NCBI GenBank assembly: GCA_024196135.1
Contig: JAMQCK010000045.1
Coordinates: 1 to 64,000 of the forward strand
From: Pleurotus ostreatus/Saccharomyces cerevisiae fusant
Taxonomy: Eukaryota > Opisthokonta
Length of the DNA: 64,000 bases
Reading direction: 5' to 3'
Shown in pieces: positions 1,913 to 36,940 of this stretch; position 1 is the stretch's first letter; every line of letters starts with the position of its first letter. The notes beneath the pieces are model-generated. The model was not told the origin of the DNA. It searched no databases and saw nothing but the letters and a program-made list of their open reading frames with translations. Both the position numbers and the translations under genes were made by a program.

Positions 1913-3274
1913 ATGATCCAGACTATTGTGGCTATATCGCCTATTTGTGTATGTTTTTCCGCGTTTTTCAGCCGTAGGGCGTATCATCATAAGCGCGAGG
2001 GAAGCGATGTGGACGAGGCTTCCCTCCTTGGGATTCAGCGCCGCATATCAGCTCAGCTGCATCTGCATCGCTTGCTCGTGACGCCGGTCCACCGTCTTCC
2101 TTCTGAACTTCTCTCTGAAGTCTTCCTCCACTACCATGACGCCCTCGTCGACACTCGAGATGAGCTCGACATTCTCTTCAAGATCGAGTTCACGATCGTT
2201 TGCGTGTGCTCATCCTGGCGCGCGGCGGCGTATGGGACCCCTCAGCTGTGGACGCGTCTCACGAGCCCGCCGGCGAAGATGTTCCTGGAGTCATACGTGC
2301 ATCGCTTCCTTCCTTTGTCCGGGACTCTCCCTATTCACCTCAACTCGCGCTCTGCGGATGGGATGCTGCATCACTTCCTACTTCTCTTGCGGTCTCACGC
2401 GTTCCGATGGGAATCCGCCTGCTTCCGGGGTAGGACGAGCGATCTCAAGGACTTCGGACCTGTGGACGTTCCACTGTTGCAGCGACTTGACCTTGAGTTG
2501 ACGGAAGAAGGATATGCGGAAATGAAGGAGCCTCTCAGATTTCTGAAGACCGCCCCTCAACTCAAGCACATATCATTTCGTGCGCCGGCTATGTCTTCCT
2601 ACCTCTCGCTAAGGCCGGTGTCCGCACTCACATCTCTCCGTGTGCACATCACGATCTCCCGCACGCAGGTCATCATCCTGGCGTTGCAAGAGCTTGCTGA
2701 TACGTTGGAGGACCTAGAGTTCAGCGTCTTTAGCGATCTGTCTGTCAACCACGCGCCGTCCACATTGCCAGTCGAGTTACCCAAACTCGAGCGCATGCGC
2801 CTGCTCAATCGCTCGTGCGCTGCGCTTGACTTCATCACTCCCCCGAGGATTGAATGTCTCACTCTCGACGGGCCCAACAAGAAGGCGCCCGGCGCTTTAC
2901 TTCGCTGCCTCGTGCGCGAACCGCAAGTGACCGCTGGTCTCCGTCGCCTAGACCTGCGGGGACGCGACATGATTAGGAACCTTCAAAATCTAGAGGATCT
3001 CATAAGCTGCTTCGAGCGCTTGACTGGTCTTCGCGAGCTGGTCTTCGCCCATCCCCCTCCGCTTGCGATCCTGGAGGTCCTCCACGTGCGCGGGGATGTG
3101 CGGCCCCTACTTCCGAACCTGCGCGATGCGAACTTCAAGACGACGAGGGAGACGGTGGAGGCGTACATGAACTTCAGGAAGTCGAGGGCCGAGCAACGGA
3201 TGGTGCGTGGTGTCCATGTGGTCGCGCTGAACCACACCGCGGCGGATGATCCTCGTGAGTGTCTTCGTGTGTAG
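1913..3274 (+). CDS. F-box protein (LRR-like C-terminal part), 5'-truncated duplicate
   Basis: A 453-codon open frame. From about residue 26 it is a close paralog of the complete gene at 35,646-37,190. The F-box (PVHRLPSELLSEVF, about residues 57-97) is followed by an about 350-residue region that has the leucine-rich look of fungal F-box/LRR receptors. The first 25 residues come from unrelated flanking DNA. Homology with the complete copy starts abruptly near 1,988, at the sequence encoding HKREGSD, so about 85 N-terminal residues of the parent, including its helical leader, are missing. The ATG at 1,913 belongs to the new flank. The protein ends with ECLRV and a stop, where the paralog runs nine residues further. 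It is convergent with the coiled-coil gene downstream (275 bp gap). It is either a pseudogene kept open by chance or a re-promoted short isoform. F-box proteins recruit substrates to SCF ubiquitin ligases; the target is unknown. Confidence 0.7.
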   Translation: MIQTIVAISPICVCFSAFFSRRAYHHKREGSDVDEASLLGIQRRISAQLHLHRLLVTPVHRLPSELLSEVFLHYHDALVDTRDELDILFKIEFTIVCVCSSWRAAAYGTPQLWTRLTSPPAKMFLESYVHRFLPLSGTLPIHLNSRSADGMLHHFLLLLRSHAFRWESACFRGRTSDLKDFGPVDVPLLQRLDLELTEEGYAEMKEPLRFLKTAPQLKHISFRAPAMSSYLSLRPVSALTSLRVHITISRTQVIILALQELADTLEDLEFSVFSDLSVNHAPSTLPVELPKLERMRLLNRSCAALDFITPPRIECLTLDGPNKKAPGALLRCLVREPQVTAGLRRLDLRGRDMIRNLQNLEDLISCFERLTGLRELVFAHPPPLAILEVLHVRGDVRPLLPNLRDANFKTTRETVEAYMNFRKSRAEQRMVRGVHVVALNHTAADDPRECLRV

Positions 3275-3548
3275 TCAACGCATATGCTTACTTTATAAGC
3301 AGTTGAGACGTCGGAGTCGCGCGTTAGGGATTGGCTAGCGGGGATGTTTTGAGGTAGGGCGGCGTGAAAGAGAAGGTTGCGGGGAGAGATAAAAGGGTGC
3401 AATGGAGGTTCGGTTTGCAGATAGGATATGTATCAGACAGTTGAACTGAAAGACAGAGCGCGCTGAAATGCTTCTGCGAACGGGTTGAGCGGTAGCAAAT
3501 GCGGGACTGGCAGCTTGGTCAAGAAATGCTCGAAGCAATATACTACGC

Positions 3549-5330
3549 TTAGCGATGCCCGCGTCCCGTCGACACTGGACTCCCTCTACCTCGTGGTGTG
3601 CCCCTACTGGCACCTCCCCTGCTTCCGCCTCCCTCCTGCGGGCGTCCAAATAGGGCTCCGATATGCTGAGCGACGAAGGGAGGAGGGGCTGGGCCGGCGT
3701 AGCGATGGTATGGTGCCGGACGAGGACCGCCCCAATTGGGAGGTGCCATACTGGCAGGTCGAGGCAGCGGGCGCGTCGAGCCATGCCCCCATTGATGCGG
3801 CGGTCGTGGTCTGCAAGGAGTGCGTTAGAGCTGAGCACTAGGCTTTGACGAGAGGACTCACCCATTCGCCTGACTCTGCGGCTGGCTCCGTCTTTCCAGC
3901 GCCTCATTCTGCGTAGTCAGCGAAGCGAGCTGCCCCTTCAACGCCTTCACCTGCGTCTCGAGGGTCCGCACCTGTACCTCCGCGCCCTCCGCCCTCTGTG
4001 CTAGGTCACCTGCGCGCTGCTGCAGTTCTCCCATACGGCGCTCGTCGACCTTGATGCGCTGCTCCCGAGCGGTCGCTTCAATGGCGCGTGCCTCGGCGAT
4101 CTGAGCACGCTTCAGCGCATCCTGCAGACCCTTCTGGGCCAGATCAGCGCATCGCATGGCGTCCTGCAGCTGCTCGTGGGACTCGGCGTTGCGTCTCTCC
4201 GCCGCCAGCGCACGCTGTTCCACCTTCTCGAGCCGGGTATCGGCGACGACGAGACGATCTTCGAGCTTTCTAATGGCGGCCGCATAGCTCTTCGCCTGCG
4301 ATTCGGCATACTTCGCGCGTGCCTCAGCGGCGGCGAGCGCCGAGTCCTCTCCAGAAAGATGAGCAGGGTCACTTCCAGCGCGGTCGTCCGCAGCGCGAGG
4401 GCGAGTCGCGCTCGTCGAGAATGCTAAGCCCAAGAGTGTGTTGTCCTCGTCTGAGCGGTGCGCAGTTCTGTCTTCGAGCTCGCCCGCGAGAGCTTCGACC
4501 TCTCGGGTACGCTCCTCGGCCGCATGCGCGCGGGCCTCTGCCGCTCGTAGACGCTCTTCGACCTCCCTCAGGCGACTTCGCGCGCATGTAGCGTCCTTCT
4601 CGGCGTCTTCGGCGCGCGACTCTGCTTGTCGAAGACGAGCATCCGCTGAGCGCGCGCGTGCTTCGGCGTCCTTGACCTGCGCCGACGCGGCAGTGGCCCG
4701 ACCAGACGCCTCCCGAGCAACAGACACGGCCGTCGCAGCGCGCTTCTCCGCGCGCGATGCCCTCTCGTCCGCCTGCCGAGCCATCTCCAGCGCGGCCTCC
4801 GCCCGCTGCTCTGCCGACCATAGCTGCCCCTCGGCCCGCTCCGCACGCTTGTCAGCATCCTCCGCCCGCGCGCTCTCCGAGGCTGTGTATTTCTGCGCGA
4901 GCCTGGCGCGCGTCTCGGCGTCGCGCATCCACGTGGTCGCCTGAGCAGCCTGCTGCCGCGCAGTCGCCACGCTCTCGTCGGCCTCGAGGATCGAGGCTTG
5001 CGCGTCAAGTAGCGCACGGGCGAGGCGTCGCATGCTACATTCTGCGTCCGAGAGCTGCTGCTCGACGAGTTGAAGGCAGCTACGCGGGTTGGTTGGCCAA
5101 TCGGATGGGGTAGCGAACACGGGTGTAGGTGTCAGGGACTCATTGGTCGACTCGGATGAGATGGAGGAAGACGCTGGGGATGGCGCGCGTGCGGGGTCAA
5201 AAATCTCCTCCGTCCTGCCATCGGAGGGGGAGCCCGTGACGCAGTGGATACTGGCGCTGGAGAGTCAGTTCTAGGTGAACCTTTGCACAATTAGTTATAC
5301 GCACCTCAGGCGAGACGCAGGACAGGACAT
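3549..5330 (-). CDS. alanine-rich coiled-coil protein with RGG/proline tail, copy 1
   Basis: Three exons: 5330-5305 (only eight full codons, MSCPASRL), 5250-3862 and 3810-3549, giving 558 residues. After a Ser/Thr/Pro-rich leader come long AEARAxxAE-type heptads at about residues 65-270. A non-helical acidic linker follows, then a second coil to about 465. The last exon encodes a tail rich in Pro, Gly and Arg with RGG and RGR motifs, as in RNA-binding or phase-separating tails. The start is supported by the second copy at 33,612-35,396, which keeps the same tiny first exon, identical exon 2 length (1,389 nt) and the same splice phases. The large frame alone would suggest a 420-residue protein starting at 5,120; the conserved splice sites argue for the longer one. 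I do not recognise a named family. It could be a scaffold or RNA-granule protein, but this is inference. Confidence 0.78.
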
Positions 5331-7239
5331 GCCAACTCGAAATCAACAAAAATGCAAAGGATTCGGGATACAGGGATGGGAAAGGAGAGAGTATGTGCAC
5401 AATACGGCCGGCCGCAGGACTAGGAACAGGGACGGTGCTGAGGAGTACTCCCTAGAGCGTGATGAGCGTGAGGGTGATCGAGTGCAACGTGCTGAACATG
5501 AGCTTCTTTTGTCATAATGGGAACTCGACTTCGTTCTTACGCGCGTGAAGTGCTGGCTACCGGCTTGCTCTGTGTCATTCGTGGTTAGCAACACGACAGT
5601 GTCTGAGGTAGGATGTTTACCTTCCATCGGTGCAGTGAATACGATCATCATTGCGAGGAGGGTAAGGTCGCATTATATCATAGAGTGATAGGGGTTCCTG
5701 GTGAGTTCTTAAATTCTATGGTTCTAAGTGACCGACCGCAATGGGCGACATGGTGGTCACGAGCAAGGCTGCGAAGACGTACCATGGGAGGCACGTGGGT
5801 TCCACGTGCACGCCTCGCGAGCGCAGTGGAGGTCCTCCGTCCCCTCTTGCGATGTTCTCCGTACATGTTCCGCTCCTTCTCCGTCCCCGAATATAGCTAT
5901 ATCATCAATTGCAGAGGGGAGAGAAATGCTCCTCAATATCACTCACCCTGGCGAACACGCGGCGCGATTATCAAGGCTTTCGAGCCCAATCAAACCGCCA
6001 TCAGCGAACTTTCCGACGTCTCGTACGCCGCTTTCCATTCCAGGCCCCACAAAGGCAAGGTCGTGCTCGTCAATACGGCCTCGAGGCGCCCCTCGCGTTG
6101 GGCGGCTGCATAATTAGGCTTCACGTCGGTAAGGTTACCTGGTTTCCGCCTCTCATATGCGCCTCCATAGCATCACGCCTCGTGCTCGTATCCTATCGCA
6201 TATCTCGTCGACTGTGCATTCCATTGGGTCTCAATGTCGCCTTCCAGCCGGTTGCGCGTCTCTTCGGATCTTGGTTGCCGTACCTGTACAACGCTCATTA
6301 GCCTCGCGTACTTCACGTCGCACTCAAGCTCTCCGCCGTACGCATGCTGGTCGACAGGAGCCCCGCGTACCTGCTGCGTGGCGAAAGCATCACCCTAATG
6401 CTCCTGCGGCCTGACCAATTGCGGGATAATTGTACATTCGCGCTCAAGCCTCGAATCGAACCGACGGACACAAGGAAGGAGAACATGGCAGAGCGGACTC
6501 GTCGAGCTTGACAGCTGGAGCCCGTGCCTACGGCGTTCTTAAGCGCCACCAGATACAGAGGAGGGGCATAGCGAAGCCTTACCGAGCGTAGCGGTTCCTG
6601 CTTTGCAAACGAGTTCCACAGATACTTGTGAGGCGTTTGAAAGGCGGAGTCATCGTCGACTGACGTTGCTTGTAGGAGGAAGACCGGCGGCTGAGATAGG
6701 AGACCTTCGAATAATTCCAAGCTCACGGCCTGATGCATCGCGCGTTGGAATGGGAACGCCGAAGCGCGAGGTTGTTGTAAGTAAGGGCAACATCTACAGG
6801 ACCAATTGCGATACATCGTCAAAGAGACAGAACATAGCCCAGACGCCGTACCTCTGCTATGAAGTCGGCATGAAATCGAGCGCGACCATGATAGTGGACG
6901 CGAGACTCGAGCTTGATGATATCGTCCTGGAAGGTGGGCGTAGGACCTCACGGTCACCTGGACCTACGGGTACGCATAAGCACACGAGAAGAGTATATCC
7001 CCAACCAAATCTTACGAAGCACGTCTCGTGAGGCCGTCTTCGAGACAGCGCGAGAGTGACAACATGAGCGCGACGGCGCCCGCGCCAACCGAAGACCTCT
7101 CGAATCGGGAAGTCTGAAAGAACGCGACCACCCGCACGCGCTCCGCACGGAGAGGGCGTTGAGCGTCCTCGCCAACGCGCCACAGGCTTAACTCCCCATT
7201 GAGCCACGGTTTTCCTTCGCCGACGTGCTACGGTCTCCT
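5331..7239. other. non-coding stretch: end of IR1a plus about 800 bp unique to the left arm
   Basis: Positions 5,331 to about 6,420 belong to the inverted duplication and contain one copy of a dispersed repeat. From about 6,420 to 7,240 the sequence has no partner in the right arm. Short open frames exist, but none has splice or motif support. Confidence 0.55.
5950..6260 (+). repeat. dispersed repeat R1, copy 1
   Basis: A block of about 300 bp present three times in the window: here, at about 32,545-32,800 in reverse orientation as part of IR1, and at about 40,140-40,425 outside both inverted duplications. Copies 1 and 2 keep an open frame containing FEPNQTAISELSDVSYAAF; copy 3 does not. It could be the remnant of a mobile element or of a duplicated gene end. 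No terminal repeats or transposase were seen. Confidence 0.6.
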
Positions 7240-7359
7240 TCAACAATGCACCGCGGACTCCTTCGCCAGTACGTGACCACCGCCTTCGCTGATACGTCCC
7301 GAGCGTCCTCCCCGATACCCTCCGGCCTCCTTTACCCAAGGAGTCGCCTGCGAGCGGCC

Positions 7360-8965
7360 TGCTGATTGAGAAGCTGTGATGCGAGCCGCATGTTGCGGGA
7401 ACACTGATCTTGCGAGTCGCATGGGGCGGGCGCCCACAAAGACATGGGCGTGAGAGCGTATCGAGCGCCGCGCGATAGAGTTTGCTGCGAGCGACGGCCG
7501 GTGGATAGAACTGAGGGCGGAAACGGGCGATCTTGTCGAAGGTCAGCAAAGGAAAGGAAGGGAGGAGGTTGGCGTAGCTCACCAATTCGGAAGCGCGATG
7601 AACATGAGCTCGGCGAGATTAGAGACGGTGAGCTTCTCGGCACGACCTACAAGCAAGCGATGAGCGAAAGGAAAGTTTGATGCCGATACCCACGCTTGAT
7701 AGAGTTCACCCAGAATACAAGGCAAACGATCTGAGGGTGCTTCTACAGCGAATCGGATAGCATATCGCTGACGTTGTTCTGATTGCTCACCTTGCGCCGC
7801 TTCACGACTTCTGCCGGCGGCTGATTGCCCGGGACCTACAAAGCGCGTCCAAGCTGAAGCGTCCATAATAGGACCCACCATAGGGTGTGAGCCCAATGCG
7901 TCCCGCCCGCAAAGGCGCGAGAAGCAGAAGAGGGACGCGTTACAGCTGATATTGTCGTGAGAGGTTCGCCGTCAGTTGGAACCCCGAAATAAGAGTCTAT
8001 GTTGAGAAGAGGGTGCACGCGTCAGCGATTTGCCCATCTAATAAGGCAACCTGAAAGCCCACCTTGACGCTGCGTCATGCACCGGTCCGCCTTCTCACGC
8101 AGAATAATAGGTCCTGGGAGGGGATCAGTGATGCGAACCGCATGTCGACCGAAGCAGGACCTTGCGAGCCGCATGTTAGTAGAAGCTCGATCTTGCGAGC
8201 CTCATGGTGCGCCCACAAAGGAATGGGCGTGAGAGCGTGTTGAGCGGACCCTGGAAAATAGGGAGAGGGCGTATGTGGTCATTATCCGCGGAGAGGAACA
8301 TGGGACCATAACAACAAGAGATCGCTCAGTAAAGCGCGAGTACGATAGGAGAGCCCGACTAGAAAACCGGCGGACAGTCTACAAGAACGAAGTCAGCTGA
8401 AGGTCGCAAAGTCAACGCTAAGTATCAGTACCCACCATCGACATCGTCGTCGCGCTCCCGCAATACAAGACGAAGCTTTTCTGGTGCGCTACATTCAGCG
8501 AGTCGGATAACGCCCCGCCAGAGAAAGAGTGCATGCTCACCAGTTCATTCTTGTGGCTTCTGCCGCCGGCCGGTAGCTGAACTTCGATCACCAGCGTGGA
8601 CCTACAGAGCGCGCCCATTTTCATTCAAATATGGTGAAACCCGCGTATGGAGGTCAATCGAACACCAGCGCTCGCCGAAGCCGCGAAAAGCAAAAGGATA
8701 CATCAGAGCTTTATTGCCGTGAGAGCCGCAATCGTCGCAGAGAAGTCGAGTACATGGGCATGGGCGTACGATGTGGGTGATTGGCAAGAAGCAGGAGGAC
8801 GCGTCAGCAAGATACGCTCGCAAAAGGAAACCCGAAAGCGAACCTTCGTACCTCGCGCCGTCTTGACCTTCGGACCGCCTTGACCTTTGTACCCCGGTTA
8901 ACCTTCTTGCCCAGAAAGGAAGGTCCTGGGAAGGATCAGTGATGCGATCCGCATGGCGAGCGGTA
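7360..8965. repeat. tandem repeat of about 780 bp carrying GCGANNCGCATG motifs, left copy
   Basis: Similar passages start near 7,371, 8,130 and 8,937. Each has TGATGCGA followed by CCGCATG, and the second and third are preceded by a shared AGGTCCTGGGA...GGATCAG string. The first two units continue into CCCACAAAG...ATGGGCGTGAGAGCG. The third unit is cut short. The motif is nearly self-complementary and occurs at least five times. Nothing indicates protein coding. The mirror copy lies at 25,060-26,610. Confidence 0.6.
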
Positions 8966-9429
8966 GGAGTTAGCTTGTAAGCTTTGCAAACAAGGGTCCT
9001 TAGGCATCGGATGCTTAGGCGCTTAAACGGTCTGTCGATGTTGAGGTGGTCCAGAGCTCTTGAAATGCTTCAAGATCGAGAACTACGAGCGAAAGAAAGA
9101 ATAACGAGCTCTATTCGACGCTTCAGTACACATCATCTGCTCGGCACGTCAGAAAAGGAACTCCATCCGCAGAATACGAAGCGCCTACCACATAATCTAG
9201 ACCACATCTTCGCTATCCCTCGACAATCCTGCCCAATCGCATCCTCCACCCGGCAAATATTCCGCGCGTCGCGATACCCTACCGCTCCATCTTCAACGAT
9301 ACACGCGGTCGAGGGCGCGCCGCATGCGCTAGAGAAAGTCACGAGTAGCGCGAATGATCAGGAGCGAATGCGATGGCGCTGTGAATGAATTCATCAGCAA
9401 AAGAGCGTAAGCGGTGGCGCGGCGACTAT

Positions 9430-9515
9430 CCGGATGTAGGCGAGATATTCCGCCGTGGGCGAGGTATCCGGTTGTGGGCGAGATATTCGGATATGGGCGA
9501 GATATTCGTCCGTGG
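9430..9515. repeat. minisatellite, GTGGGCGAGATATTCGG-like unit
   Basis: At least four imperfect copies of a 17-18 bp unit in a row, with a further diverged copy near 9,600. It lies inside IR1b. Confidence 0.6.
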
Positions 9516-9754
9516 GTGTACCAGAGCAAGTGGTGGCGTGACGACTCAGGAGCACGAGCGGCAGCGCAGCAAATCAGAAGCGTAAGTGGTGGCGCGGCAG
9601 TGGGCGATATATTCGGCTTATAGGGGACCGCACTCCTTGTGGGTAATGATACCCGGACGGAGGCGGCCGTCGACCGTCCTCCTTGCGGAAGTCCGCTTCG
9701 CGGTGATCTGCTTGTGATATGTGATCGTCCGATTGCCGCCGCGCAAAAGGAAAG

Positions 9755-9900
9755 ACGGATGCGCACGAGGGGAGACGGATACGCACGAGGGGAAGACGAA
9801 GACGCATACGCACGAGATGTGGCGAGTACTCATGAGGGGCGACAAACACGCACGGGATCTAACGAATCAGCAGGGGAAGCAGCCGATGCACATGAGGAAC
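9755..9900. repeat. minisatellite, ACGCACGAGGGGAGACGG-like unit
   Basis: Five or so imperfect copies of a unit of about 18-25 bp. The right arm carries a differently spaced version near 24,300-24,400. Confidence 0.55.
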
Positions 9901-12109
9901 AGCGAATAGGCACGGGATGTGGCGATGGTGGACTAGTTCACAAGACAAGCCCGCAGGGACTAGTGTATGAGAGAAGCCCGCAGGAGATTATCCGCGGAGG
10001 ACGTCGTCATGTTCGAATAATCGCGCTCAACAAGAGGTCAGTTGATGGTCAGGCGTTGGCTACGTATGAGCGGCTAGCGTACCAAACAGACGGCTCTCAA
10101 CGGTCGTCATGCCTCAACGGTGATCTCGGGTTCTTCAGCGTTGGTCCTTGGCTCTCCAGCGTAGGTCTTCGGCTCTCAACGTTACCTCAAAGGCCATCAT
10201 CGCGCATTCGCCCGCGCCGTATCCGGTATCAAGCTTGCCGTGAGAAATCGACGAGGGCCGCATGTGCCGACGACGGGCTCGCCAGCACAACATGTGATAT
10301 CAAGAGGGAGAAATCACGTCATACCGCTGAGTGAGTAGTCGTTATTCGTCCTCCAGCTGTGGCTGTCCGAAGTCCCCGGGCGAGGAGAACAAGAACCGTC
10401 GCGGAGCACAAGAGCGGTAGCGGACCGGGGCCCGACGCGCGCGTATAGCACCTGCGATAGAGTTCACCGGCACGCAAAACAGCAAATCGGAGGATATACG
10501 CACGGGCAGGACCAGGTAACGGTGGCGCTTCCTCGCCCACGATCAGGGTCGACGAGCGAGGGCGGGAGGTGTGCGCGTGTGGGTGCGAGCGATGGTGGCG
10601 CTGGGCGAACTTCCCCTTGCTCCGCCGTGGGTGCGTGCTGGGCGGCAATCGGGGGAAGCGCGGTCTCACTCGGGTTCCCAGGCGTTTTCGTAGAATATCA
10701 GAAACTCTCGGCAAGTCGGTCAGTCGCCCTCTGTGGACTCACAAATTCGTCCACTTGCAGGCCCTGAGCAGGAGCTTGGAGGTTGAGGGTGGCAGGATAT
10801 GCATCATGTTTCGTCGCTGAAGAATATATTGCGAGCTAGACAAGGTAGGAATGGTCTGGCTATCGGCGAGGAACGGCGGTCGGGGGGCTGATGGCCGGGA
10901 TGATGGGAGAACAAGGCAAGCAGTATGTGGCGTCGTACGGCTTTCGCCGAGACACGCATGACGCGTTATGTCACGTCACAGATCACGAAGTTCAACTTCT
11001 GCGATGAACACGTCGAGGTCTTCCTCGCAGGAGCCGGGAGCTTATGCTTTCCTAACAGAGCAAGAAGTATTCACATTGAGACGCCTCAGAGCTACTGTGT
11101 ACAGTACAGCTCTTTGTTTTTCCTCATTTACATACTCATGACTACTTCACCGCGTAGACTCCGCCACCCACGCCGTTCCAAGCATTTTGAAGCCCGCGCA
11201 AAGTTCTATATATCATCTTGTGAGTCGTGACGTGCGACGCGTATCTTGGCGTTTTACGGCCCATATGCTAGTCCCCCTACTCTACAACGACCCATTGTCC
11301 TCCCCGCCACCTCAAACCCGCCTCCCATCCATATCCGTGCGCAATGTTCCATCCTCCAACTCCCATGCTATCCATCGCGCATCTTATTCATTTGACTGAC
11401 TCGGATACTATACACATTGTGCGTGCTCATTGCATCGTACATCCCATCCCGCGCGGCGCGTCCTTCCCGATATGGCGGACAATGGCTGGAGATAGAGTAG
11501 ACGCCGCGGGGTGAGCCGCGTCTATTCCACTCTTCCGCGTGAGAGTACAATGTCTCGCTATATAGTCGAACGGGCTCTGGGGGAATGGGTGTAATGAAGC
11601 GTGAATGATGACCGATGAGAGCGAGAGTAGAAGGCGCGGACCAACGATGGACGCTGGGTCTATATCGAGGGACAATGTTCAACGCATATATTGTCCATTT
11701 CGGAGGAGGTATACAACGCGACTACCTGCTACCTACGTCTTATAGCCACCACGGACGCGTCCTATAGCCACCGCTGGCTACGCTCTATTTCCACCGTTAC
11801 GAGTCGGACGATGGCGAAGGGACAATGCGAGTACTATACGTGATGACAGCGCGAATAGACCGTGAGTGTCGCCGCCGTCAGTCGCGTCGGGACCGCGCGT
11901 TAAATGACTCGTCGGTCGCGCAGATGAAGTCTACGGTCGCGTATACGATCTTGCTTCGTCGCAGGCTCCCTAAGGCCGAGGGTGAGAAGGATGGCGGACG
12001 AGGGTCAGAAGGACGGCGGATAATGGGCCGTCAGTATTGACTGCTGAGACGCGGCGCCATTGACTTCTGGGAGTCGGCGCTGTCTGTTGCACTGATTCGA
12101 CGCCAGAGT

Positions 12110-12262
12110 ACAATGAGTCGACGCTATAGAGTACAATGAGTCGCTGCGAAAGATCACTGAGTTGCTGCGAAGGATCACTGAGTCGTTGCGAAAGGTCAAT
12201 GAGTCGCTGCTATGGACTGCATGAGTCGCTGCTATTGACTGCATGAGTCGCTGCTATTGACT
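12110..12262. repeat. minisatellite, GAGTCGCTGCNA-based unit
   Basis: Imperfect tandem copies of a unit of about 23-26 bp beginning AATGAGTCGCTGC and ending GACTGC or GATCACT. The last three copies are almost identical. Confidence 0.65.
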
Positions 12263-12405: not shown

Positions 12406-12464
12406 GCGGACAGCACCGAGTCAATGCACACATATGAAGTCGAGGTACGCGCCGGCTGCGAGAG

Positions 12465-22513: not shown

Positions 22514-23094
22514 AGGTCTCGGGATAGCGATAGAGTGTGCTGATGAAAGTCCTGTGCTAGGCGGGCGCGGGGTAGGACTCCTGGAGGTTCAGACGCGAAT
22601 GGCGAGACGCAGTACAGTCAAACGCCTCTCACACGCGAAGAGTGCGAGAGGAGTAGACCGCGGAGGGACAAGAGCGTCCGAAAGGGCGAAAGGGCGTATC
22701 TAGGTAGCCGCGCTCGAGGGTATCCGGGAGATTGTGAAGGTCGAATGCAAGATCTGTTCTTGTGCGCGCTACGGCGGGCGCTGCCAAAAGCGGAAGGTAC
22801 GATCGCGGCCTGCGCCGGTCCAAGCGAAGGCGCCTGGCCTCAGCCGTCATAACTAACTGATGAGAAATATAACACTTGAATGCACGATTACAGTGAATCT
22901 GCATGCGTGTGTTTTTATGCAAAGCCCCGCGGTGTCTTCAAGATGCATCACTGCCGTGTATGCCGATGCTTGGGGGTTGAAGTAATCCGCACACATAATC
23001 GGTGTTGAGTAAGCTGTACAGTTCGAAGTAGTGCGGGGCCCTTCAAAGATCCTACACATATCATGGGAAGATGGTAGCCTCAGCTGCTGCGTCG
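22514..23094. other. MYND gene upstream region
   Basis: Contains the presumed MYND-gene promoter (transcribed leftwards) and the inner junction of IR1b. No additional gene was recognised. Confidence 0.5.
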
Positions 23095-26610: not shown

Positions 26611-26745
26611 CTTCTCGATCAGCAGGCCGCTCGCAGGCGACTCCTTGGGTAAAGAAGGCCGGAGGGCATCGGGGAAGACGCTCGGGACATGTCGGCGAAG
26701 GCGGTGGTCACGTACCGGCGAAGGAGACCGTGGTGCATCGGTGAG

Positions 26746-27310
26746 GGAAGTCAAGTCGGAGACGAAGTTTACCCCTTCCCCGTAGTGCGCCACTTCTGTC
26801 GCCTCCTTCGCAAGGCTGCTGGGCTCTATGAGGTACTACTCGCCTTCTCGTCCGATGATATACGGCGTCTGGCCCGCGTCTGATGACTTGTCTGGCAGTG
26901 GCGTTGTGCTAGAGATCTTGAATGGCATGCACTCGACGCAGTCGACGATCGCAATATAGCTTCCTCAATTCATCATTCTCGGACTCGGGAATCGAATCTG
27001 TTGTCACTTCGATACGAGCGCGAGCTAGACGTACCCCTTTGTTATAAGAATACCATAAACGAGCTTCGCACAAATGAGTGTGCACAATGGGAGCGAGACG
27101 CCCGCGTGACCGCGGAAGGATCTTGATACGATTGGAAAAGTGCACAAGACAGGGTCAAGCCTGCGGTTCGTACCATTTCCTGATGGCAAATCTGGTAGAG
27201 GAGTCCGGGCTTCGTGCTCAGGTTTCAGGTGCACGCTTGACCTCAGTGGTTTCCCTTCGCCTTCAATATCTCCTTCCGCCTTGAAATGAAAGTAAACCAC
27301 GATTCCTTCG
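26746..27310. other. junction between IR1b and the inserted F-box block
   Basis: About 560 bp with no partner in the left arm of IR1 and no recognisable gene. It contains the 3' end region of the F-box gene that follows on the minus strand. Confidence 0.5.
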
Positions 27311-29744
27311 TCAGGACTTTAGTTCGTCCACACTCCTTGGCATCTTCGGGGATAAACTCACCTCCTCATTGAATACTAGATCCTCCTTCTCGTCGGCATG
27401 CACGGCCTGCCAGACAAATCCTCCGGTCAGCATCGATATACGAAAAAAACATCTGTTGAGAACGTACGTCCTGGAACTCTATCCCGTGGGGATGATGTTC
27501 ATTCCAGATACTCTCACCCACTGGCGAATATCGAGCGCCCTGCATGTCCTCCGGCGTAGTCGTCATCGGGTCCAGCCCCGCCAACGTCACTAGCCGAGCC
27601 GCCAGGCGGAGACGATCAGGCCTGACAATGACCGCCTCCGCGGACCACGCGCGCTGGCGTACGATGCACTGCGGGTCGTTGGGGTCCGTCCTAGTAGTCG
27701 GCCAGCTCCAGAAAAAATTGGAACGCCGCAGGACACCCGGATACCTTCTGAGACACATGTCCCCGTCGTCGAAGACCGCTGTCGCGAGGCAGAGGTCCGA
27801 CACCGTAAACGGGCGCGCGCGGTGGGGGTCCGCGGCGTTGAGCTTGTCGACCAGCACGCTCCGGCACGACGCAAGCCACGCGTCGAAGCGGGCGGGGGAA
27901 AGTTTGTCGATGAGCGCGCGCATGTCGTCTTTCGTCAGGGGCTGTTCGACCGGCGTGCCCTCGATGAGGTCGGCGACTTCTCTGAAGGTGACCAGATCGC
28001 CGATTCCTGGATGCGTACAATCTACGCCGCACCTCGAGTGGCCCAGAAATTCATTGTATGCGTCTTTGAGTGCAAGGTATCGGGCCTTCAATGTCTTGCG
28101 CCTTTGAGATGCTGCTGCCGCATGAAGCAGCCAGGCTCGTATCGGAATCCAATCTAAAGTGGTGGGTTACCGAGCATGAGATCTCCGTACATTTTAGACA
28201 ATCATCAGGGCGTACCACCGTCTGAGAGCCGTTCGCACTTGTGGATGAGATCGTAAATCTCGTCAGGGATACTGTAGCAGCCACCGACGCCCTCCGTGCC
28301 CCGGAAATACCGTTTGGCGTGGCCGTGGAGAAGCTGCCGCGCCAGATCATCCTTGGCAGCAGCAGGGTCATCACACTCGATCTCAAGCTCGCGCATTTTC
28401 TTCGTAATCCTGTGCGCCGCCAGAATATCAGCCAACAGCGCGCTCGTGAAGTAAATTCTGGGCGCACTCTCTGACTCTTTCCTCCCGTATCTCATTCTCT
28501 CTGCTTTGCTTCTTGCATCGCTGCTCCAGGTCCCAACTGTCGCAGATACGGGCGTGCTGCTCGACGGCGAGTTTGATGAGTTGTGCAATGCATGCCACGG
28601 GAGCTATCAGACTTGTACCTTGACTAAACTCTCGTGATCCTTCTCCTTCTGGATGATCCACGCCTTTTTATCCGCGGCCAGTGCGAACTCAGCAACAAGG
28701 CGCTCGATATGCACACGCGCGTAGTAATTCTCGAACGCGGCAGAGAAACCTATCATCACGACATCAGTGAAGGACAACTTTAGCGAGAATGTCTGCAACT
28801 AACGGTCGACGGCCGGGAGGACCTTGTCAAGGGGGTAACCGCCCCCAAGGCAGCCCTGGATCTCGCGAACTTTTGGGAGTCTGTTCATTAATTTTTCGTC
28901 GATTATCTGCCCGCTATTGTAGGCGGGGTGAGCAAAAATGCGTAGTCAGGCGATACTTTTACACACCTGTGATAATAGCACTGGGTGCAGCACTTGATGC
29001 GCGCAGCCCATGCCCTGACAAAGTAATCCTTCGGACCCGGGGATGCATGACAAAACTAGAAGGTGACTGTTAGCTAGCAGGCTTGCGCGCCACTGAACGA
29101 TGACGTACATCACAGACCCGGTCGACGAGGAGACTGAGGAATTGTGGCACGGTCATGTCGCTTGGCGCCGGTGGCAGTCCATGGTCCGTGTTACCGTAGC
29201 TCGCCCTCCAGATCCAGTCCGCGCGAGGGCCCGTGAGGGTGTCCCGTAGAGCTTGTGACGTCCGGGATACGTGTCGGAGGGACATGGGGTCGACGTGGGT
29301 GAGGATCTGAGGGACGAAGAGTGAGCTCGAAGTTGAATATGGGATCGTGCGAGAGCTAGCAGAGGATGAGGCGCTCGGAGACGGCGAGGCGCTCCAAAGC
29401 GGCGAGACGCATAAGACGGGTGTTGCACTCCGAGACGACGAAGCGCGACAACGTACCTCGAGGAGCACGTCGAGAGGCAGATCTAACAATGCGCTGCCGG
29501 GCGCGCCCAAGTTCGACGCTGATATCGCTTGGTCTCCTCCGTCCTCGGTCTTCTGGCGCTTTCGTGGCGGCGATTCGTGGTCGAGTGACGGCGACTCGTG
29601 GTCGAGTGGCGTGTGGCCCTCTTCAGCGGCAGCGACCGTGATGTCGCTTTCTGTACGTTTCGGAGTCATCCGCGCGGGCGAGGCGTCGAGACCAGGGCAT
29701 GCATCGAGACTAGGGCAGGCGTCGAGACTAGGCGAGCAGCTCAT
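27311..29744 (-). CDS. F-box protein with CxxC/CCxxC motif (gene F), probable chimera
   Basis: Nine exons: 29744-29457, 29306-29109, 29055-28967, 28913-28804, 28749-28619, 28556-28468, 28409-28216, 28153-27468 and 27406-27311, giving 626 residues with an unbroken frame. The leader carries a PPRKRQKTE nuclear-localisation-like motif. The F-box (LDLPLDVLLE / ILTHVDPMSLRHVSR) spans exons 1-2. The cysteine motif is C161, C164 (CDFC), then C184/C185 and C188. Exon 8 holds the conserved DLVTFREVADLIEGTP...LNAADP...RQRAWSAE...LAGLDP block. Exons 1-2, the promoter and the first 29 nt of exon 3 are nearly the same as gene B. Everything after about 29,027 is strongly diverged, so the gene looks recombinant. 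The exon 7 donor could be three bases away. Predicted role: SCF substrate receptor; the target is unknown. Confidence 0.78.
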
Positions 29745-31796
29745 GGCGGGGTGGCGAGTGAGATGTCGATGGTCGCAGTTGAAGGTCAAGATGAGGTAGA
29801 CGGTCCATGCGCCCATGCTTCCGGATTGTTGTCTAACATGGCCAAATCGGCAGATGCCGAACTCTATTGTTCTCGATTTGTCAGCGAAGGCACAGGAAAC
29901 TGGACACAAAAAGGGAAGGGTGACTGAGCGCTGCGAAACAGGCGAGTGGGATCAAGAACGAGGGCGCGAGTAATGAGAAAAAATAGAGGCCCGCGCGCTG
30001 ATTCTATCGCATACCTCGAAGTCTTTTCATTATTTCTCGAGGTCTTTCCACCACTCCCTGAAGACCTACCCACAGCCGCTGCCGATGCGAGCAACGTCGA
30101 AGGACGCTTCGTCATCGAGCAGCGGCAAGCTGGGCGGGAGTGCGCAACTGAACGATGCCAGATCTTCAACGAGCGCGGGGGATGAAGACCTGAGTGCAAG
30201 ACCAGAAGGCCTGCTCGCGAGGCAAGAAGCGTGAGCGCGAGGCCCGAAGAGCTGAACACGAGGTCAGAATATGGACGACCGAATACCTATAAGCAAGCTC
30301 ACGATGTGGAAAAGGATCAATTCATGCGAGGTGCTTCAGTCACGGATGCACATCTCGACGCATGGCGACGTCGAGCCATGTGCAACGGCGCCGGCGATGG
30401 CGGTTCGCGTATAGCTAGAGGCAGAGCGAGGCGGCCCCGACGGAGCCCCTGCGTATTCCCGGGGCGTGCGTACTCGGGGTTGTGTTCGTCCATGGAGTTC
30501 AGAACGCGCCTGTGGGAAAGGTGTCAATGTAGTCGTGGTCTTCCATGCAGGCGCGATTGGCGTGCAGTTGAGGACGCGCGAGTCATACAAGTCAGCTTGC
30601 GTGGGGTGGTTGGAATCGCAATGAGGCTAAATAGCGGTGACAATGACCGATGGACACGACCAGGACCAGGACACGACAAGAGCGGATGGTCATGTCGGGT
30701 GGACGGTTCCGCGCTTTTTGGGGGGTGGGATGGCGGCGGACGCCGTCATGACAGCCGCGCTTGGCATAGCTCCTAGCTTCGGGCCCGAACAGAGGGGAAG
30801 AGGAAGGGCTAGCGAGTATCTGAAAGCGCGATCCTGCTCGCGGTCGCGGCGCCATCTCGTCTCCTTCCCGCCTCCCAATCGCGACGCAAGCGCCACAGAG
30901 GTCGACTGGAGCTGAAATAAATGCAGAGTGTGCAGCCTTGGTGCAAGAACGAAGGGAGTCGAGGGGTATGGCTATTCCGCGGGATGGGGGGATGTTGAGC
31001 GCGCTAAAGCTGGAGATAGCCGCGGCAGCAGTTCTGACGGCAGCGACGAAGTCGGACATGAGCATGCATGAGGAGCGCGCGTTGGGAGCGCTTTACTGTG
31101 GTATTGTCGTTGGTGGCCGCCGCGCGAAGGGGCGCGGATGAATCGGCGAAGTTCCAGACATCTTCACGCAGGTGCGGCGTGCTGTGCGAGCTTCAGCAAT
31201 AGCTTCGCCAGCGTAAGCTCTAGTGACGCACCATCCAGAGACATTCCCCCTATGCAAACTGCAGTTCTCTGTAGTGCACCTCGGTATCGACGTCTCTCGC
31301 AAGCGCATTCGTATGGGTGTTCAAGTTCTCTTGGGCGTTCGCGCGTTCGTCCTTCTCGCCTGAGATCCCCGCCCGCTCAACCGGGCGTCATCCGTCAATA
31401 GATCTCTCTCGAGACTGCCGAGGCTAGGTATCGATAGTCGAGTGTTTACAGCCAGAGCGAGGGGGGATGATGGAGGCCGGGAGCAAGGGGAAATACCTCC
31501 GCATCACTGCCATCAGCGGGCACTGATCACTGCGCCCATCAAGCCAAGCAGAGCCAAATATGTGTATCCACCGCGTTCATTCCCTTGCGCGATTCTTCTA
31601 CTACGACCGATGACTACAGAGTAGCCTTCACTTTAGCTCACCTAGGAAACTGCATAATATCCTAAGGACTCAATCAGGCCAGCAATTTCTACATCAAGAT
31701 GAAAAGACCTTAAATCAATCGGACCAGCACACAACGTAGCGCATGTGGTTCCTCCAGTTGCCTCTTCAAGCTCAGTATCTAGAGTCGGACCCGTAT
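29745..31796. other. duplicated intergenic region between F-box genes F and G
   Basis: Inverted copy of 47,997-50,038. It contains open frames of up to 181 codons that are also open in the other copy. Because the duplication is recent, this is weak evidence for a gene, and no motif was recognised. The part next to gene F should contain its promoter, which is shared with gene B. Confidence 0.5.
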
Positions 31797-32138
31797 TTAG
31801 CCATATTACGAGCACGAGCGAATCTGTCGAGGAGCTGATGGATACTGGTATCCTCTGACGCGGGTGGCTGACCGTGATCCGTGCTGGCATAGCTAGCCCT
31901 CCAGATCCAGTCCAGCGATGGGCCAGTGAGGGTGCCTCGCGGGGCTCTCGACGTCCTAGATAGGCGCCGGAGGGATAGCGGGTCGACGCGGGCGAGAATC
32001 TGCGCAATGAAAGCGGGAGTTGGAGGGAAAGAATGACTGTGGGTTGGGGGAAGAAAAGGCGACGGGCAGCTTACCTCAAGGAGAACGTCGAGAGGCAGGG
32101 CAAAGAGAACGCCTGCTTGCGCCAGCGCATCAGTATTC
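31797..32138 (-). pseudogene. F-box pseudogene G: gene A copy with 5' truncation and internal deletion
   Basis: Retains the last part of exon 1 (TDALAQAGVLFALPLDVLLE), the first intron and most of exon 2 (ILARVDPLSLRRLSRTSR...WIWRASYASTDHG). It then jumps directly into the last exon of gene A (the sequence encoding FARARN followed by the stop region). Compared with gene A it misses the start codon, the end of exon 2, exons 3-8 and about two thirds of exon 9 (gene A 46,121-47,966). It cannot make a functional F-box receptor, though it could encode a short F-box-only fragment if transcribed from a new start. Confidence 0.82.
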
Positions 32139-33611
32139 GCTGAGTCCCAGAGCATACCTGCAAGACGAGAGCCGCAGGATTACATTCGGTAAGCCTTTTG
32201 TATGCCACTTCTGTCTACCGAGCGCTGCTCATAGAGGGCTCGAAACTTGACGGCTATATGGCGAGCTTCTGTCGCGTCCTCCTTCCTCATGTCCGTCGCC
32301 TCAGCTCGAATGCTTGCGCTGACCTTCTTCAGACCGCCGGGACATCAGAGTGACCCTTTCGCCACGCAGCAGGTACGCCGGGCGCCTCTCGACCAGCATG
32401 CGTGCGACAGAATTCGGGCGCGACATGAGGCTGACGAGCGATGCACAGGTACGGCAACCAAGATCCGAAGAGACGCAACCGGCTGGAAGGCGACATCGAG
32501 ACCCGATGGAATGCACTCAACGAGGAATGCGATAGGATACGAACACGAGGCGTGATGGCTATGGAGGCGCATATGGGAGGCGGAAACCAGGTAACCTGAC
32601 CGACGCGGAGCCTAACTATGCAGCCGCCCAACGCGAGGCGCCTCGAGGTCGTATCGACGAGCGCGACCTTGCCTTTGTGGGGCCTGGAATGGAAAGCGGC
32701 GTACGAGACGTCGGAAAGTTCGCTGATGGCGGTTTGATTGGGCTCGAAAGCCTCGATAATCGCGCCGCGTGTTCGCCAGGGTAAGCAATAGACTGTATTT
32801 GCAACGGGGGTTTTCGGCCTTTTTCCCGTTTTGCTAGCGGGCACCTGCCATATTCGGTCGACCTTCATCGCCCAGCCCTCTGCCTTCCCCTCCGAATTTC
32901 GCAGCGAAACCTGGTATATGAAGTCATTTCTACTTCAGATGGTTGCCTGATTTTTCTCGAGGGCACTCGAAGACGAAGAGGTTGCGCGGAGGCGGGAGGA
33001 TGGAATCGTGGGAATATATTGCTAGCGGAGCTGCAAATACACTCTAATATCGAGGAGCATGTCTATCTGGTATGCAGCTCATAACATAACCATATTCAGG
33101 TACGGAGAAGGAGCGTATTACACGAGGGAGCAGTTCGCGAGGCGTCCACGTGCAGCCACGTGCGCCTTGGTTCGACTTCACATTGACAACCCTGGTTATG
33201 ACCGCCATGTCACCAATCGCGATCGCTCATATGGCTCTCTGAAGCCAGGGATAACTCGCTCCACTTCAACCCAAGGATGCGAAGCCAACTATTCTACAAC
33301 GATGCCCGTATCAACTGAAGCAGACGCATGGTAATGGTTTCTAGCTCGAAAGACGACGGCATTGCTGACAGTAAACTATCCAGTGTATGGTCGTGGCGAG
33401 ACCATCGCTAGGTTTAGTACGAGACTGAGCGCCCTCTATGACTCAATCAGCTCATGTTTAGCACGTTGTGCTCGATCAGCCTCACGCTTGGCACGCTCTA
33501 GGGAGTACCGTCCCTGTTCTTAGTCTTGCGGCCGGCCGTATAGTGCACATATTCTCTCCTTTCTCATTACTTTCATCTCACTCCTGCCCATCTTGTCGAC
33601 CTCGAGCTCGC
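32139..33611. other. junction and non-coding part of IR1a right arm
   Basis: The first about 170 bp are unmatched junction sequence. From about 32,310 the sequence mirrors 5,331-6,420, including dispersed repeat R1 copy 2 at about 32,545-32,800. No supported gene. Confidence 0.5.
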
Positions 33612-36600
33612 ATGTCCTGTCCGGCGTCTCGCCTGAGGTGCGTAGAGCTATATGTCCAAAGACTCACCTAGAACTAAATCGCCGCCGTCAGTATCCACTG
33701 CTCGACAGGCACCCCCCACGACGGCATCACTAAGGAGCTTTTTGAGCGCACACGTGCGTCGTCCCCAGCGCCTTCCTCCATCTCATTCGAGTCGACCAAT
33801 GATCCCCTGACACATACACCCGTATTCGCCACCCCTTCTGTGTGGCCGACCAACCCGCGTAGCTGCCTTCACCTCGTCGAGCAGCAGCTCTCGGACGCAG
33901 AATGCAGCATGCGCCGCCTCGCCCGTGCGCTGCTCGACGCGCAAGCCTCGATCCTCGAGGCCGACGAGAGCGTGGCGACCGCGCGGCAGCAGGCGGCTCA
34001 GGCGACCACGTGGATGCGCGACGCCGAGACGCGCGCTAGGCTCGCGCAGAATTACGCAGCCTCGGAGAGCGCGCGGGCGGAGGACGCTGACAAGCGTGCG
34101 GAGCGGGCGGAGGGGGAGCTATGGTCGGCGGAGCAGCGGGCGGAGGCAGCTCTCGAGATGGCTCGGCAGGCGGATGAGAGGGCATCGCGTGCGGAGAAGC
34201 GCGCTGCGACGGCCGTCTCTGTTGCACGGGAGGCGTCTGGTCGGGCCACTACCGCGTCGGCGCAGGTCAAGGACGCCGAAGCTCGCGCGCGCTCAGCGGA
34301 TGCTCGTATTCGACACGCAGAGTCGCGCGCCGAAGACGCCGAGAAGGACGCTACAAGCGCGCGGAGTCGCCTAAGGGAGGCTGAAGACCGCCTACGAGCG
34401 ACAGAGGCCCGCGCGCATGCGGCCGAGGAGCGTACCCGAGAGGTCGAAGCTCTCGCAGCCGAGCTCGAAGATAAAGCTGCGCATCGTTTGAACGAGGACA
34501 ACACTCTCTTGGGCTCAGCATTCTCGACGAGCGCGACTCTCCCTCGCGCTGCGGAAGACCGCGCTGGAAGCGACCCTGCTCATCTTTCTGATGAAGACTC
34601 GGCGCTCACCGCCGCTGAGGCACGGGCGACGTATGCCGAATCGCAGGCGAAGAGCTACGCGGCCGCCATCAGGAAGCTCGAAGATCGTCTCGTCGTCGCC
34701 GAGACCCGGCTCGCGAAGGCAGAACAGCGTGCGCTGGCGGCAGAGAGACGCGACGCCGAGTCCTACGAGCAGCTGCAGGCGACGAAGAGATGCGCAGAGC
34801 TAGCCGAGAAGGGTCTGCAGGATGCACTGAAGCGTGCTCAGATCGCCGAGGCACGCGCCACTGAAGCGACCGCTCGGGAGCAGCGCATCAAGGTCGACGA
34901 GCGCCGTATGGGAGAGCTGCAGCAGCGCGCGGGTGACCTAGCGCAGAGGGCGGAGGGCGCGGAGCTCCAGGTGCGGACCCTCGAGACGCAGGTGAAGGCG
35001 TTGAAGGAGCAGCTCGCTTCGCTGACCGCGCAGAACGAAGCGCTGGAAGGACGGAGCCAGCCGCAGAGTCAGGCGAATGGGTAAGTCCTCTCGTCAAAGC
35101 CTAGTGCTCAGCTCTAACGCACTCTTCGCAGACCGCGAGCGCCGCATCAATGGGGGCATGGTTCGACGCGCCCGCTGCCTCGACCAGCGAGTATGGCACC
35201 TCCCAATTGGGGCAGTCCTCGTCCGGCACCATACCATCACCGCTACGCCGGCCCTGCCCCTCCTCCTTTCGTCGCTCAACATATCGGAGCGCTGTTTGGA
35301 CGACCGCAGGAGGGGGGCGGAAGCAGGGGAGGTGCCGGTAGGGGCACACCACGAGGTAGAGGGAGTCCAGTGCCGACGGGACGCGGGCATCGCTAAGCGT
35401 AGTATATTGATTCGAGCACTTCATGATCTCGCACCATGTCCACCTTTGCTACTACTCAACCCGTTCGCAGAAGCAGTTCAGCGCGCTCTGTCTTTCATTT
35501 TCACCGCCTGATACATCTCCTGCTGTCGACTCGAACCTCCATTGCACCCTTCTGTATCTCCCCGCAGCCTTCTCTTTCACGCCGCCCTACCTCAAAACAT
35601 CCCCGCTAGCCAATCCCTAACGCGCGACTCCGACGTCTCGGCTGCTCATAAGGTTAGGATCTGCTTCAAGAATACACGAAGACACCCACGAGGATCATCC
35701 GCGGCGGTACGGTTCAGGGCGACCACATGGACACCACGCACCATCCGCTCCTCGGCCCTCGACCTCCTGAACGCCATATAAGCCTCCGCCGTCTCCTTCG
35801 TCGTCTGCAAATTCGCATCGCGCAGGTTTGGAAGCAGGGGCCGCGCGTCGTCGTGCACGAGCAGCATCTCCAAGACCGCGAGCGGTGGAGGGTAAGCGAA
35901 GGATAGCCCTTCGAGACCGGTCATGCGCGCGAAGCACCGCTTGAGGTCCTGTGAGCTTTGGCTATCCCTCATGATGTCGCGCCCTAAGAGCTCGAGATGA
36001 TGGAGATTGGTTGCGACAGGCGCTACGCGCTCGAGATACTGAAGCAGAGTGCGCGGCGTCTTCTTGTTGGGTCCGCCAAGTGATAGTTCGACAATCCCCG
36101 GGGCCTGTATATGGTCGAGCAGAGTGCATGTCTTGTACACAAATCGCAACCGCTTGAGTTGGCGGAGCTCGATCGGCATCATATCCGGCGCGTCATTCCT
36201 CAAGAAGCCGTTAAACACGCTGACCTGCAGGTCCTCCAGGGTGTTTGCGGATTCAAGCAGTACAGATCTGATGTTGGGAAGGAGAGCAGACTGGACGTGT
36301 ATACGCAGAAATGTGAGCGCGGATGCAGGTGCGAGCGAGCGGGCGGAGAACATCGACGGCATCCGGAGGCGCAACTCGCGGAGCTGAGGCGCGCTACTCA
36401 GGAATTCCAGCGGAACTTCCACGTCTTTGAGTAGATGGAGCTCCATCCGCCGAAGGAGCGGGACGTCGACAGGTTCGATACTATTGAAGTCATCCCAATC
36501 ACCCGCCAGGCGGGCTGACTCCCATCGGAACGCGTGCGGGCGCAGGAGGTGCAAGAACGGCTGTAGCACGCCGTCTGCCGAGCGCGAATCGAGTGTTAGA

Positions 36601-36940
36601 GGCAGATTGCCGGACAATGGAAGGAAGCGGTGCACGTATGACTCCAAAAACATCTTCGCCCGAGGGACTGTGAGCCGCGTCCACAGATGGGGAGTCCCGT
36701 AAGCCGCCGCGCGCCAAGACGGGCAGACACGGACGATATTAATTTCGAGCCTGAACAGAACATCGAGAGCGTTGTTGTCCCTGACGAGGGCATCCCGGTA
36801 GTAGAGGAATACTTCCGAGAGAAGCTCAGATGGCAGGCGGTGCACGGGCGTAACGAGTAAGGTATGCAGATCGAGCTGAGTAGCAACGCGACGGTGGAGG
36901 TCGAGGAGAGACGTTTCATCCATATCGCTTCCCCCGCGCT
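32310..36940. repeat. IR1a, right arm of large inverted duplication
   Basis: Reverse-complement partner of 1,988-6,420. Includes the second coiled-coil/RGG gene and the 3' four fifths of the F-box gene at 35,646-37,190. The homology ends inside that F-box gene near 36,940, at the codons for AHKRGGSD. Confidence 0.88.
33612..35396 (+). CDS. alanine-rich coiled-coil protein with RGG/proline tail, copy 2
   Basis: Exons 33612-33637, 33692-35080 and 35132-35396, giving 559 residues. The protein is a close paralog of the minus-strand gene at 3,549-5,330, with one extra histidine in the tail. The leader (about residues 1-60) is more diverged than the coils: copy 2 has PHDGITKELFERTRASSP where copy 1 has a PSDGRTEEIFDPARAPSP-like stretch. 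Two coiled-coil blocks (about 65-270 and 320-465) are separated by an acidic, Ser-rich linker containing SDEDSAL. The last exon encodes the Pro/Gly/Arg tail ending PTGRGHR. Both copies keep frame and splice sites despite scattered substitutions, which suggests both are functional. It is convergent with the F-box gene at 35,646. Function unknown. Confidence 0.8.

What the first reader, a model, noticed from the sequence alone, without database searches (positions are those of the whole stretch)
1988..36940. Giant interrupted inverted duplication (IR1) enclosing single-copy HMG-box and MYND genes
The blocks at 1,988-6,420 and 7,240-11,010 reappear in reverse complement at 32,310-36,940 and 23,095-26,745. 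This places two single-copy genes (15.1-17.2 kb and 20.6-22.5 kb) in a 12 kb spacer between arms of roughly 4 kb each. Recombination between the arms would flip the spacer without losing genes, changing the orientation of a transcription factor relative to its flanks. That could be a natural structural polymorphism between nuclei of a dikaryon.
Basis: partly seen in the sequence, partly recalled or inferred. Interest (0 to 1): 0.78.

Follow-up and report, generated by a model that had tools for sequence, protein, structure and literature searches.

The report
Inverted paralog blocks in F-box cluster
A stretch of a split-gill mushroom genome really does contain large mirror-image gene copies around two unrelated genes; they look like old gene duplicates that have overwritten each other in patches, and whether the middle part ever flips is untested.

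Summary
Blocks A (1987-6414 / 32329-36945) and B (7236-11010 / 23097-26748) are inverted copies around a 12,086-bp spacer with an HMG-box gene and a MYND gene. The genome is Schizophyllum commune or very close (HMG gene 95-98% identical to strain Loenen D). Arm A is not two joined haplotypes: another S. commune strain has a separate orthologue of each arm's F-box-like gene (94.6% and 92.5%), while the two arm genes are 60% alike. The arms belong to an F-box gene cluster of about 120 kb on a 140,053-bp contig, whose repeated blocks are mostly inverted: 19 inverted against 5 direct matches of 200 bp or more. Divergence is mosaic: in arm A the F-box-like gene has dS 1.03, the neighbouring coiled-coil ORF 0.19 (Fisher P 5e-12). 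I read this as ectopic gene conversion on old inverted duplications; serial duplication is the main rival. Nothing here shows that the spacer flips; inversions between S. commune strains are mentioned in print without details. Arm A1 ends at a dispersed repeat and the contig end, so its true length is unknown.

The parts
1..1987 (.). dispersed repetitive DNA: WD40-coding piece (about 1-656, - strand) followed by an element with a sharp end at 1986-1988; the contig starts here
   Evidence: 45 rows including the window; C757:1-1987 100% rounded; PF00400 33.0 bits on 3-383 -
1988..6414 (+). arm A1 (inverted copy of 32329-36945)
1988..3271 (+). F-box-like gene of arm A1 (within ORF 1850-3271), 5' end cut by the repeat; orthologue of EV715DRAFT_213476
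   Evidence: PF12937, 20.6 bits, below cut-off 24.3; 405/428 = 94.6%
3100..5180 (.). high-identity tract of arm A (91.2%) against 33762-35844
3861..5264 (-). coiled-coil ORF of arm A1, 468 aa (Tropomyosin model 36.1 bits, below cut-off 38.6)
5926..6387 (.). second large high-identity tract of arm A (92.6%) against 32356-33060
7236..11010 (+). arm B1 (inverted copy of 23097-26748); gene content unclear
15157..17191 (+). single-copy HMG-box gene (two exons; some relatives are named ste11-like or ROX1)
21045..22588 (-). MYND-finger gene (finger at 21045-21239), one close copy in the genome
23097..26748 (-). arm B2
27369..29951 (-). F-box gene; N-terminal and F-box part lies in block C1, C-terminal exon 27369-28166 is a divergent paralogue (one-gene model inferred)
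29027..32135 (.). block C1, inverted copy of 45804-50697, sits between B2 and A2
32329..36945 (-). arm A2
33678..35081 (+). coiled-coil ORF of arm A2, 468 aa (Tropomyosin model 32.1 bits, below cut-off)
35649..37340 (-). F-box-like ORF of arm A2 (no Pfam match itself; homologue of the A1 gene); orthologue of EV715DRAFT_213478
   Evidence: 393/425 = 92.5%
37506..39035 (-). third paralogue of the same F-box-like family
45804..50697 (+). block C2
47074..62906 (+). run of F-box family C-terminal exons (47074, 51539, 56889, 59552, 62124; all +) whose nearest relatives lie on the - strand further right in the contig

Best explanation
The arms are old inverted segmental duplications inside a fast-evolving F-box gene cluster of Schizophyllum commune (SHOWN: inverted copies, in such a cluster). 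The arm A duplication predates the split of at least two strains (SHOWN for its F-box-like gene; not tested for B and C). Patches of the arms, chiefly the coiled-coil ORF and its flanks in A, parts of B and most of block C, were later homogenised by ectopic gene conversion between the inverted copies, while neighbouring stretches kept diverging (INFERRED from mosaic synonymous divergence). In block C this left an F-box gene whose F-box end resembles a neighbour about 21 kb away while its C-terminal exon, presumably substrate-binding, is far more divergent (divergence SHOWN; gene model and function INFERRED). The HMG-box and MYND genes are bystanders between the arms.
For: Orthology: A1 F-box-like gene 94.6% to P0123, A2 92.5% to P0122, A1-A2 60%; of 417 aligned columns 133 support orthologue pairing alone and 1 paralogue pairing alone. 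Mosaic rates inside one 4.4-kb arm: F-box-like dS 1.03 (76/165 four-fold sites differ), adjacent coiled-coil dS 0.19 (37/250), Fisher P 4.9e-12. Two-state segmentation beats one state by about 193 (A), 56 (B) and 58 (C) log-likelihood units. Coiled-coil copies are 87.8% alike but each about 78% to the only other-strain homologue found; 47 sites A1=A2 against 12 and 13 uniting one copy with it; no third close copy in this genome. Block C: N-terminal part dS 0.13, F-box exon 0.36, upstream ORFs 0.05 and 0.06, C-terminal exons 1.49 and 2.06. Crossing-over between parents 14% apart is documented in this species, and its authors say this predicts ectopic recombination (PMC4209137: abstract, one section and passages).
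Against: Conversion was not observed; mosaic divergence could come from duplications of different ages. The only other-strain coiled-coil homologue (P0121) is partial and may not be an orthologue; one search scored a capped candidate list. Four-fold counts use only codons whose first two bases match, which favours conserved sites. The F-box exon in block C (dS 0.36) is not as young as the rest of the block. A1 ends at a repeat and contig end, so one breakpoint is missing. B ORFs show dN/dS of 0.5 to 1.1, so their gene content is unclear. The cited cross studied reciprocal crossovers, not conversion.
Confidence: 0.62

Rival explanations
1. Serial duplication without conversion: the F-box-like gene pair arose first and the coiled-coil, B and C segments were copied later, in separate inverted events, next to the older pair.
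For: Different blocks have different ages by dS; block C1 looks like a copy of 45804-50697 with an internal part missing.
Against: It needs later copies to land in mirror order beside older paralogues in both arms; short unlike stretches lie inside the like ones (5505-5925, 57.5%).
Confidence: 0.25
2. One reading: crossing-over between inverted arms flips the 12-kb interval (through B) or about 26 kb (through A), giving a standing inversion polymorphism for the HMG-box gene.
For: Arms are inverted and seem to have exchanged sequence; 294 inversions between two S. commune parents are mentioned, data not reported.
Against: No strain with the other orientation was seen; longest exact runs in the arm alignments are 90 bp (A) and 64 bp (B). 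The unequal gaps show other rearrangements. Not exclusive with the best explanation.
Confidence: 0.2
3. Assembly artefact: two haplotypes of one locus joined head to head.
For: Allelic divergence in this species is large (pi 0.20 USA, 0.13 Russia at neutral sites: PMC9187340 passages). The assembly holds contig pairs with matches at the same or nearly the same coordinates (C866/C722 and C708/C573; C537/C699 and C1219/C1226), as if parts were assembled twice. I raised the odds from 0.03 to 0.05 for that.
Against: Each arm A F-box-like gene has its own orthologue in another strain, both listed with a 64,720-bp contig; the HMG gene is found once; no exact repeat of 125 bp or more within the contig that could mislead an assembler; inverted paralogue pairs recur across the contig.
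Confidence: 0.05

Closest known systems
Inverted segmental duplications with gene conversion between arms (for example sex-chromosome palindromes; recalled, no call)
   Same: inverted arms, patchy homogenisation, unrelated unique spacer
   Different: arms here are only 81-84% alike over aligned columns, with tracts near 90%; several interleaved pairs in one cluster
Inversions mediated by inverted repeats (PMC3961182 is a human example; search listing and start of abstract only)
   Same: inverted repeats around unique genes
   Different: no alternative orientation has been seen here
Clustered, fast-evolving F-box gene families (recalled for plants, nematodes and mushrooms, no call)
   Same: many F-box paralogues with a recognisable F-box (PF00646 in two examples) and a divergent C-terminal part, in one cluster
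   Different: nearest relatives mostly lie in inverted rather than direct orientation (16 of 18)

Membership tests
Inverted segmental duplication | two reverse-complement copies at separate places | tested here: met
Inverted segmental duplication | arm A copies are paralogues, not alleles joined by the assembler | tested here: met
Inverted segmental duplication | arm B copies are paralogues, not alleles joined by the assembler | not tested
   no protein search was left for B; its ORFs have no Pfam match where scanned
Gene-converting inverted repeat | uneven synonymous divergence along the arm | tested here: met
Gene-converting inverted repeat | copies within a strain closer than orthologues between strains | tested here: inconclusive
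   coiled-coil ORFs 88% within against 78% to the only other-strain protein found; that protein is partial and its position unknown. The F-box-like gene of the same arm shows the opposite
Inverted-repeat-mediated inversion polymorphism | both spacer orientations occur in the species | not testable with these tools
   no other strain's DNA held; only protein records
Inverted-repeat-mediated inversion polymorphism | long near-identical stretch able to recombine | tested here: inconclusive
   longest exact runs 90 bp (A), 64 bp (B); most crossover tracts in this species are under 35 nt
F-box protein family | F-box domain above Pfam cut-off (two-exon type) | tested here: met
   two spliced exon pairs, PF00646 26.8 bits each against cut-off 20.5; splicing inferred
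F-box protein family | F-box domain above Pfam cut-off in the genes of arm A | tested here: not met
   PF12937 20.6 bits against 24.3 for the A1 ORF, none for the A2 ORF; a paralogue at C669:119984-121444 23.3 bits: called F-box-like only
Mating-type B locus | STE3 pheromone receptors in the region | tested here: not met
   31 STE3 rows in the genome, none on this contig (the tool scores best candidates only)

The most novel reading that the evidence does not exclude
In this hypervariable fungus, where recombination must tolerate very different alleles, paralogues in such blocks are hardly more different than alleles. Direct repeats in F-box clusters are then lost by unequal exchange, leaving mostly inverted copies that persist, convert each other in patches, make chimeric F-box genes with a shared F-box end and private C-terminal ends, and sometimes flip the single-copy genes caught between them.
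Probability: 0.2. Interest if true: 0.75.

Novelty: new member of a known kind. Interest (0 to 1): 0.42.

Why it matters
Seplyarskiy et al. 2014 (PMC4209137; abstract, one section and passages seen) point out that a species whose recombination is not prohibited by such divergence should show a potentially huge rate of ectopic recombination. This locus offers a concrete, mappable place to test that: inverted paralogues with sharp identity steps, single-copy genes between them, and recognisable orthologues in another strain.

Tried and rejected
Joined haplotypes: rejected for arm A by separate orthologues in another strain; not tested for B and C. Mating-type B locus: no STE3 row on the contig. 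RNA genes: 0 tRNA, 0 Rfam matches at gathering scores. Extension of arm A beyond the repeat: the search with 36900-45800 gave 17 rows, namely itself, 14 rows on other contigs confined to a repeat of about 150 bp, and 2 short ones on this contig, so no continuation of A1 was found. Spacer DNA search: it listed only two 57-bp matches and not even the window itself, so it says nothing about copy number; protein searches were used instead. Pfam: 52 ORF or peptide queries in the six calls answered (8, 9, 28, 30, 55, 65) named few genes. Inverted excess as a general rule: in three other partly fetched F-box-like clusters the nearest same-contig relative is on the opposite strand for 5 of 6 ORFs (C553), 3 of 3 (C408) and 0 of 4 (C702), together 8 of 13; in the fetched C702 piece all four ORFs lie on one strand, so it could not have shown any, and + strand copies elsewhere on C702 were not fetched. 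The permutation P of 0.0068 ignores that neighbouring genes share strand and ancestry.

Full report
What is there. The window is C669:1-64000 of a 140,053-bp contig in a 40.05-Mb, 1277-contig genome. The HMG ORF is 98% identical (best local stretch) to K525DRAFT_273774 of S. commune Loenen D and 87% to S. fasciatum; its exons match the Loenen D protein at 97 and 95%. The species is therefore S. commune or very close. The stated blocks are real: A 1987-6414/32329-36945 and B 7236-11010/23097-26748, inverted; DNA searches of the whole genome listed each only on this contig (the tool scores best candidates only). The spacer holds one HMG-box gene (15157-17191 +; next best match 33%) and one MYND gene (21045-22588 -; finger partly matched; one full match and 31 divergent rows at 21-44%).

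A third inverted pair, C (29027-32135/45804-50697), has its left copy between B2 and A2. Self-BLAST of the whole contig shows more nested inverted pairs, starting at 51.1/75.3, 60.6/80.9, 65.1/83.9, 69.7/78.1 and 108.3/113.4 kb. Counting matches of 200 bp or more and over 1 kb apart, 19 are inverted (19.3 kb) and 5 direct (2.2 kb); several of the 19 are pieces of one block. All 469 pairs of exact 40-base repeats are inverted, none direct; they too fall in few blocks.

What the genes are. ORF clustering shows that the two largest repeat groups look like exons of one F-box family. Its F-box is spread over two exons (PF00646, 26.8 bits, cut-off 20.5, for two spliced examples), and it has a C-terminal exon, mostly of about 250-320 aa, without a Pfam match where scanned. 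I compared 18 C-terminal exons on this contig. A genome search with one gave 33 rows, 21 of them on C669. A second family is F-box-like (PF12937 just below cut-off) and includes the arm A genes; a genome search gave 77 rows on many contigs, only the arm copies being close. For the 18 C-terminal exons the nearest relative is on the opposite strand in 16 (9.4 expected by shuffling strands, P 0.0068). Those at 47-66 kb are all + and those at 74-92 kb all -, so this may reflect few events. In three other F-box-like clusters, only partly fetched, the counts were 5 of 6, 3 of 3 and 0 of 4; the last had all four ORFs on one strand.

Not an artefact, for arm A. A database search with the A2 ORF (capped candidate list) found two close S. 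commune proteins, EV715DRAFT_213478 and 213476, both listed with a 64,720-bp contig, so presumably on the same one. Aligned, A2-213478 is 92.5%, A1-213476 94.6%, A1-A2 60%. Of 417 columns, 133 unite orthologues alone and 1 paralogues alone. Each database cluster stands for 7 member sequences, suggesting both copies are widespread, though I could not see the members. So the arm A duplication predates these strains. B and C were not tested this way. Against a clean haploid assembly, several contig pairs carry matches at the same or nearly the same coordinates (C866/C722, C708/C573; C537/C699, C1219/C1226).

Mosaic divergence. In arm A the F-box-like gene has dS 1.03 and the adjacent coiled-coil ORF dS 0.19, dN/dS 0.33 (four-fold sites 76/165 against 37/250, Fisher P 4.9e-12). 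Segmentation gives high-identity tracts 3100-5180 (91.2%), 5380-5504 (90.4%) and 5926-6387 (92.6%) between stretches of 57-74%. In block C the N-terminal part of the F-box gene has dS 0.13, its F-box exon 0.36, two ORFs upstream 0.05 and 0.06, and the C-terminal exon 1.49 and 2.06 against two candidate partners. The coiled-coil copies are 87.8% alike but 77.6 and 77.9% to the one other-strain protein found, GGG16DRAFT_66046, with 47 sites where A1=A2 differ from it and 12 and 13 uniting it with one copy. That protein's only strong matches in this genome are the two arm copies, 77% each. Conversion between the inverted copies explains this best. Duplications of different ages remain possible.

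How it could work. S. commune has pi of 0.20 or 0.13 within populations at neutral sites and dS about 0.34 between them (PMC9187340, passages only). A second paper gives 0.06 and 0.05 as average pairwise dissimilarity within populations and 14% between its two parents (PMC4209137). Crossovers occur between those parents, and the authors suggest a tolerant mismatch repair and note that this predicts ectopic recombination (one section read). Coding tracts with dS 0.05-0.19 are thus about as alike as alleles at neutral sites, though the tracts' overall 7-10% difference exceeds the lower within-population figures. That makes conversion between arms plausible, and occasional flips too. The same paper mentions 294 inversions between its parents, data not reported. 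Nothing in my calls shows this spacer in the other orientation.

The outer end of A1. Bases 1-1987 are dispersed repeat (45 rows with the window itself): a WD40-coding piece and an element that ends at 1986-1988 in many rows. The homology A1-A2 ends there, and the A1 gene lacks its upstream part, the first residues of which 213476 shows. So the repeat cuts A1, and the contig begins within it. No continuation of A1 was found elsewhere.

Literature. Searches for S. commune with F-box and gene conversion (2 papers), ectopic recombination (5 held, 4 listed), segmental duplication (19 held, 10 listed) and F-box, paralog, cluster (3 papers) listed nothing that, by title and abstract start, describes this cluster. 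on F-box expansions and inverted duplicates gave nothing on it either (listings only). Only open-licence papers are held.

Verdict. The arms are part of an F-box cluster built largely of inverted blocks that have probably converted each other. The proposed flip is untested. Interest is moderate, higher if conversion or flips are shown in strains.

Noticed in passing
G000 contigs C866/C722, C708/C573, C537/C699, C1219/C1226: Pairs of contigs carry matches at the same or nearly the same coordinates, as if some regions were assembled twice or duplicated; this weakens any claim that the assembly is purely haploid.
   Followed up: no
window 1-1987: WD40-coding piece next to a dispersed element with a sharp end at 1986-1988; 1-1986 matches the start of contig C757 at 100% rounded.
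   Followed up: partly
window 41927-42076: A dispersed repeat of about 150 bp, up to 99% identical, with 14 matching rows on other contigs.
   Followed up: no
window 43716-44579; C669 67998-69302, 129116-131197, 132001-133143: Another family of paralogous ORFs on the same contig without a Pfam match where scanned.
   Followed up: no
C669 136914-136997 / 137435-137352: An 84-bp inverted repeat, 98.8% identical, with about 350 bp between its arms.
   Followed up: no
window 11977-12762: Several short tandem arrays (periods 17-42) near the left edge of the spacer.
   Followed up: no
contigs C553 and C408: Other F-box-like clusters also hold inverted nearest-paralogue pairs.
   Followed up: partly
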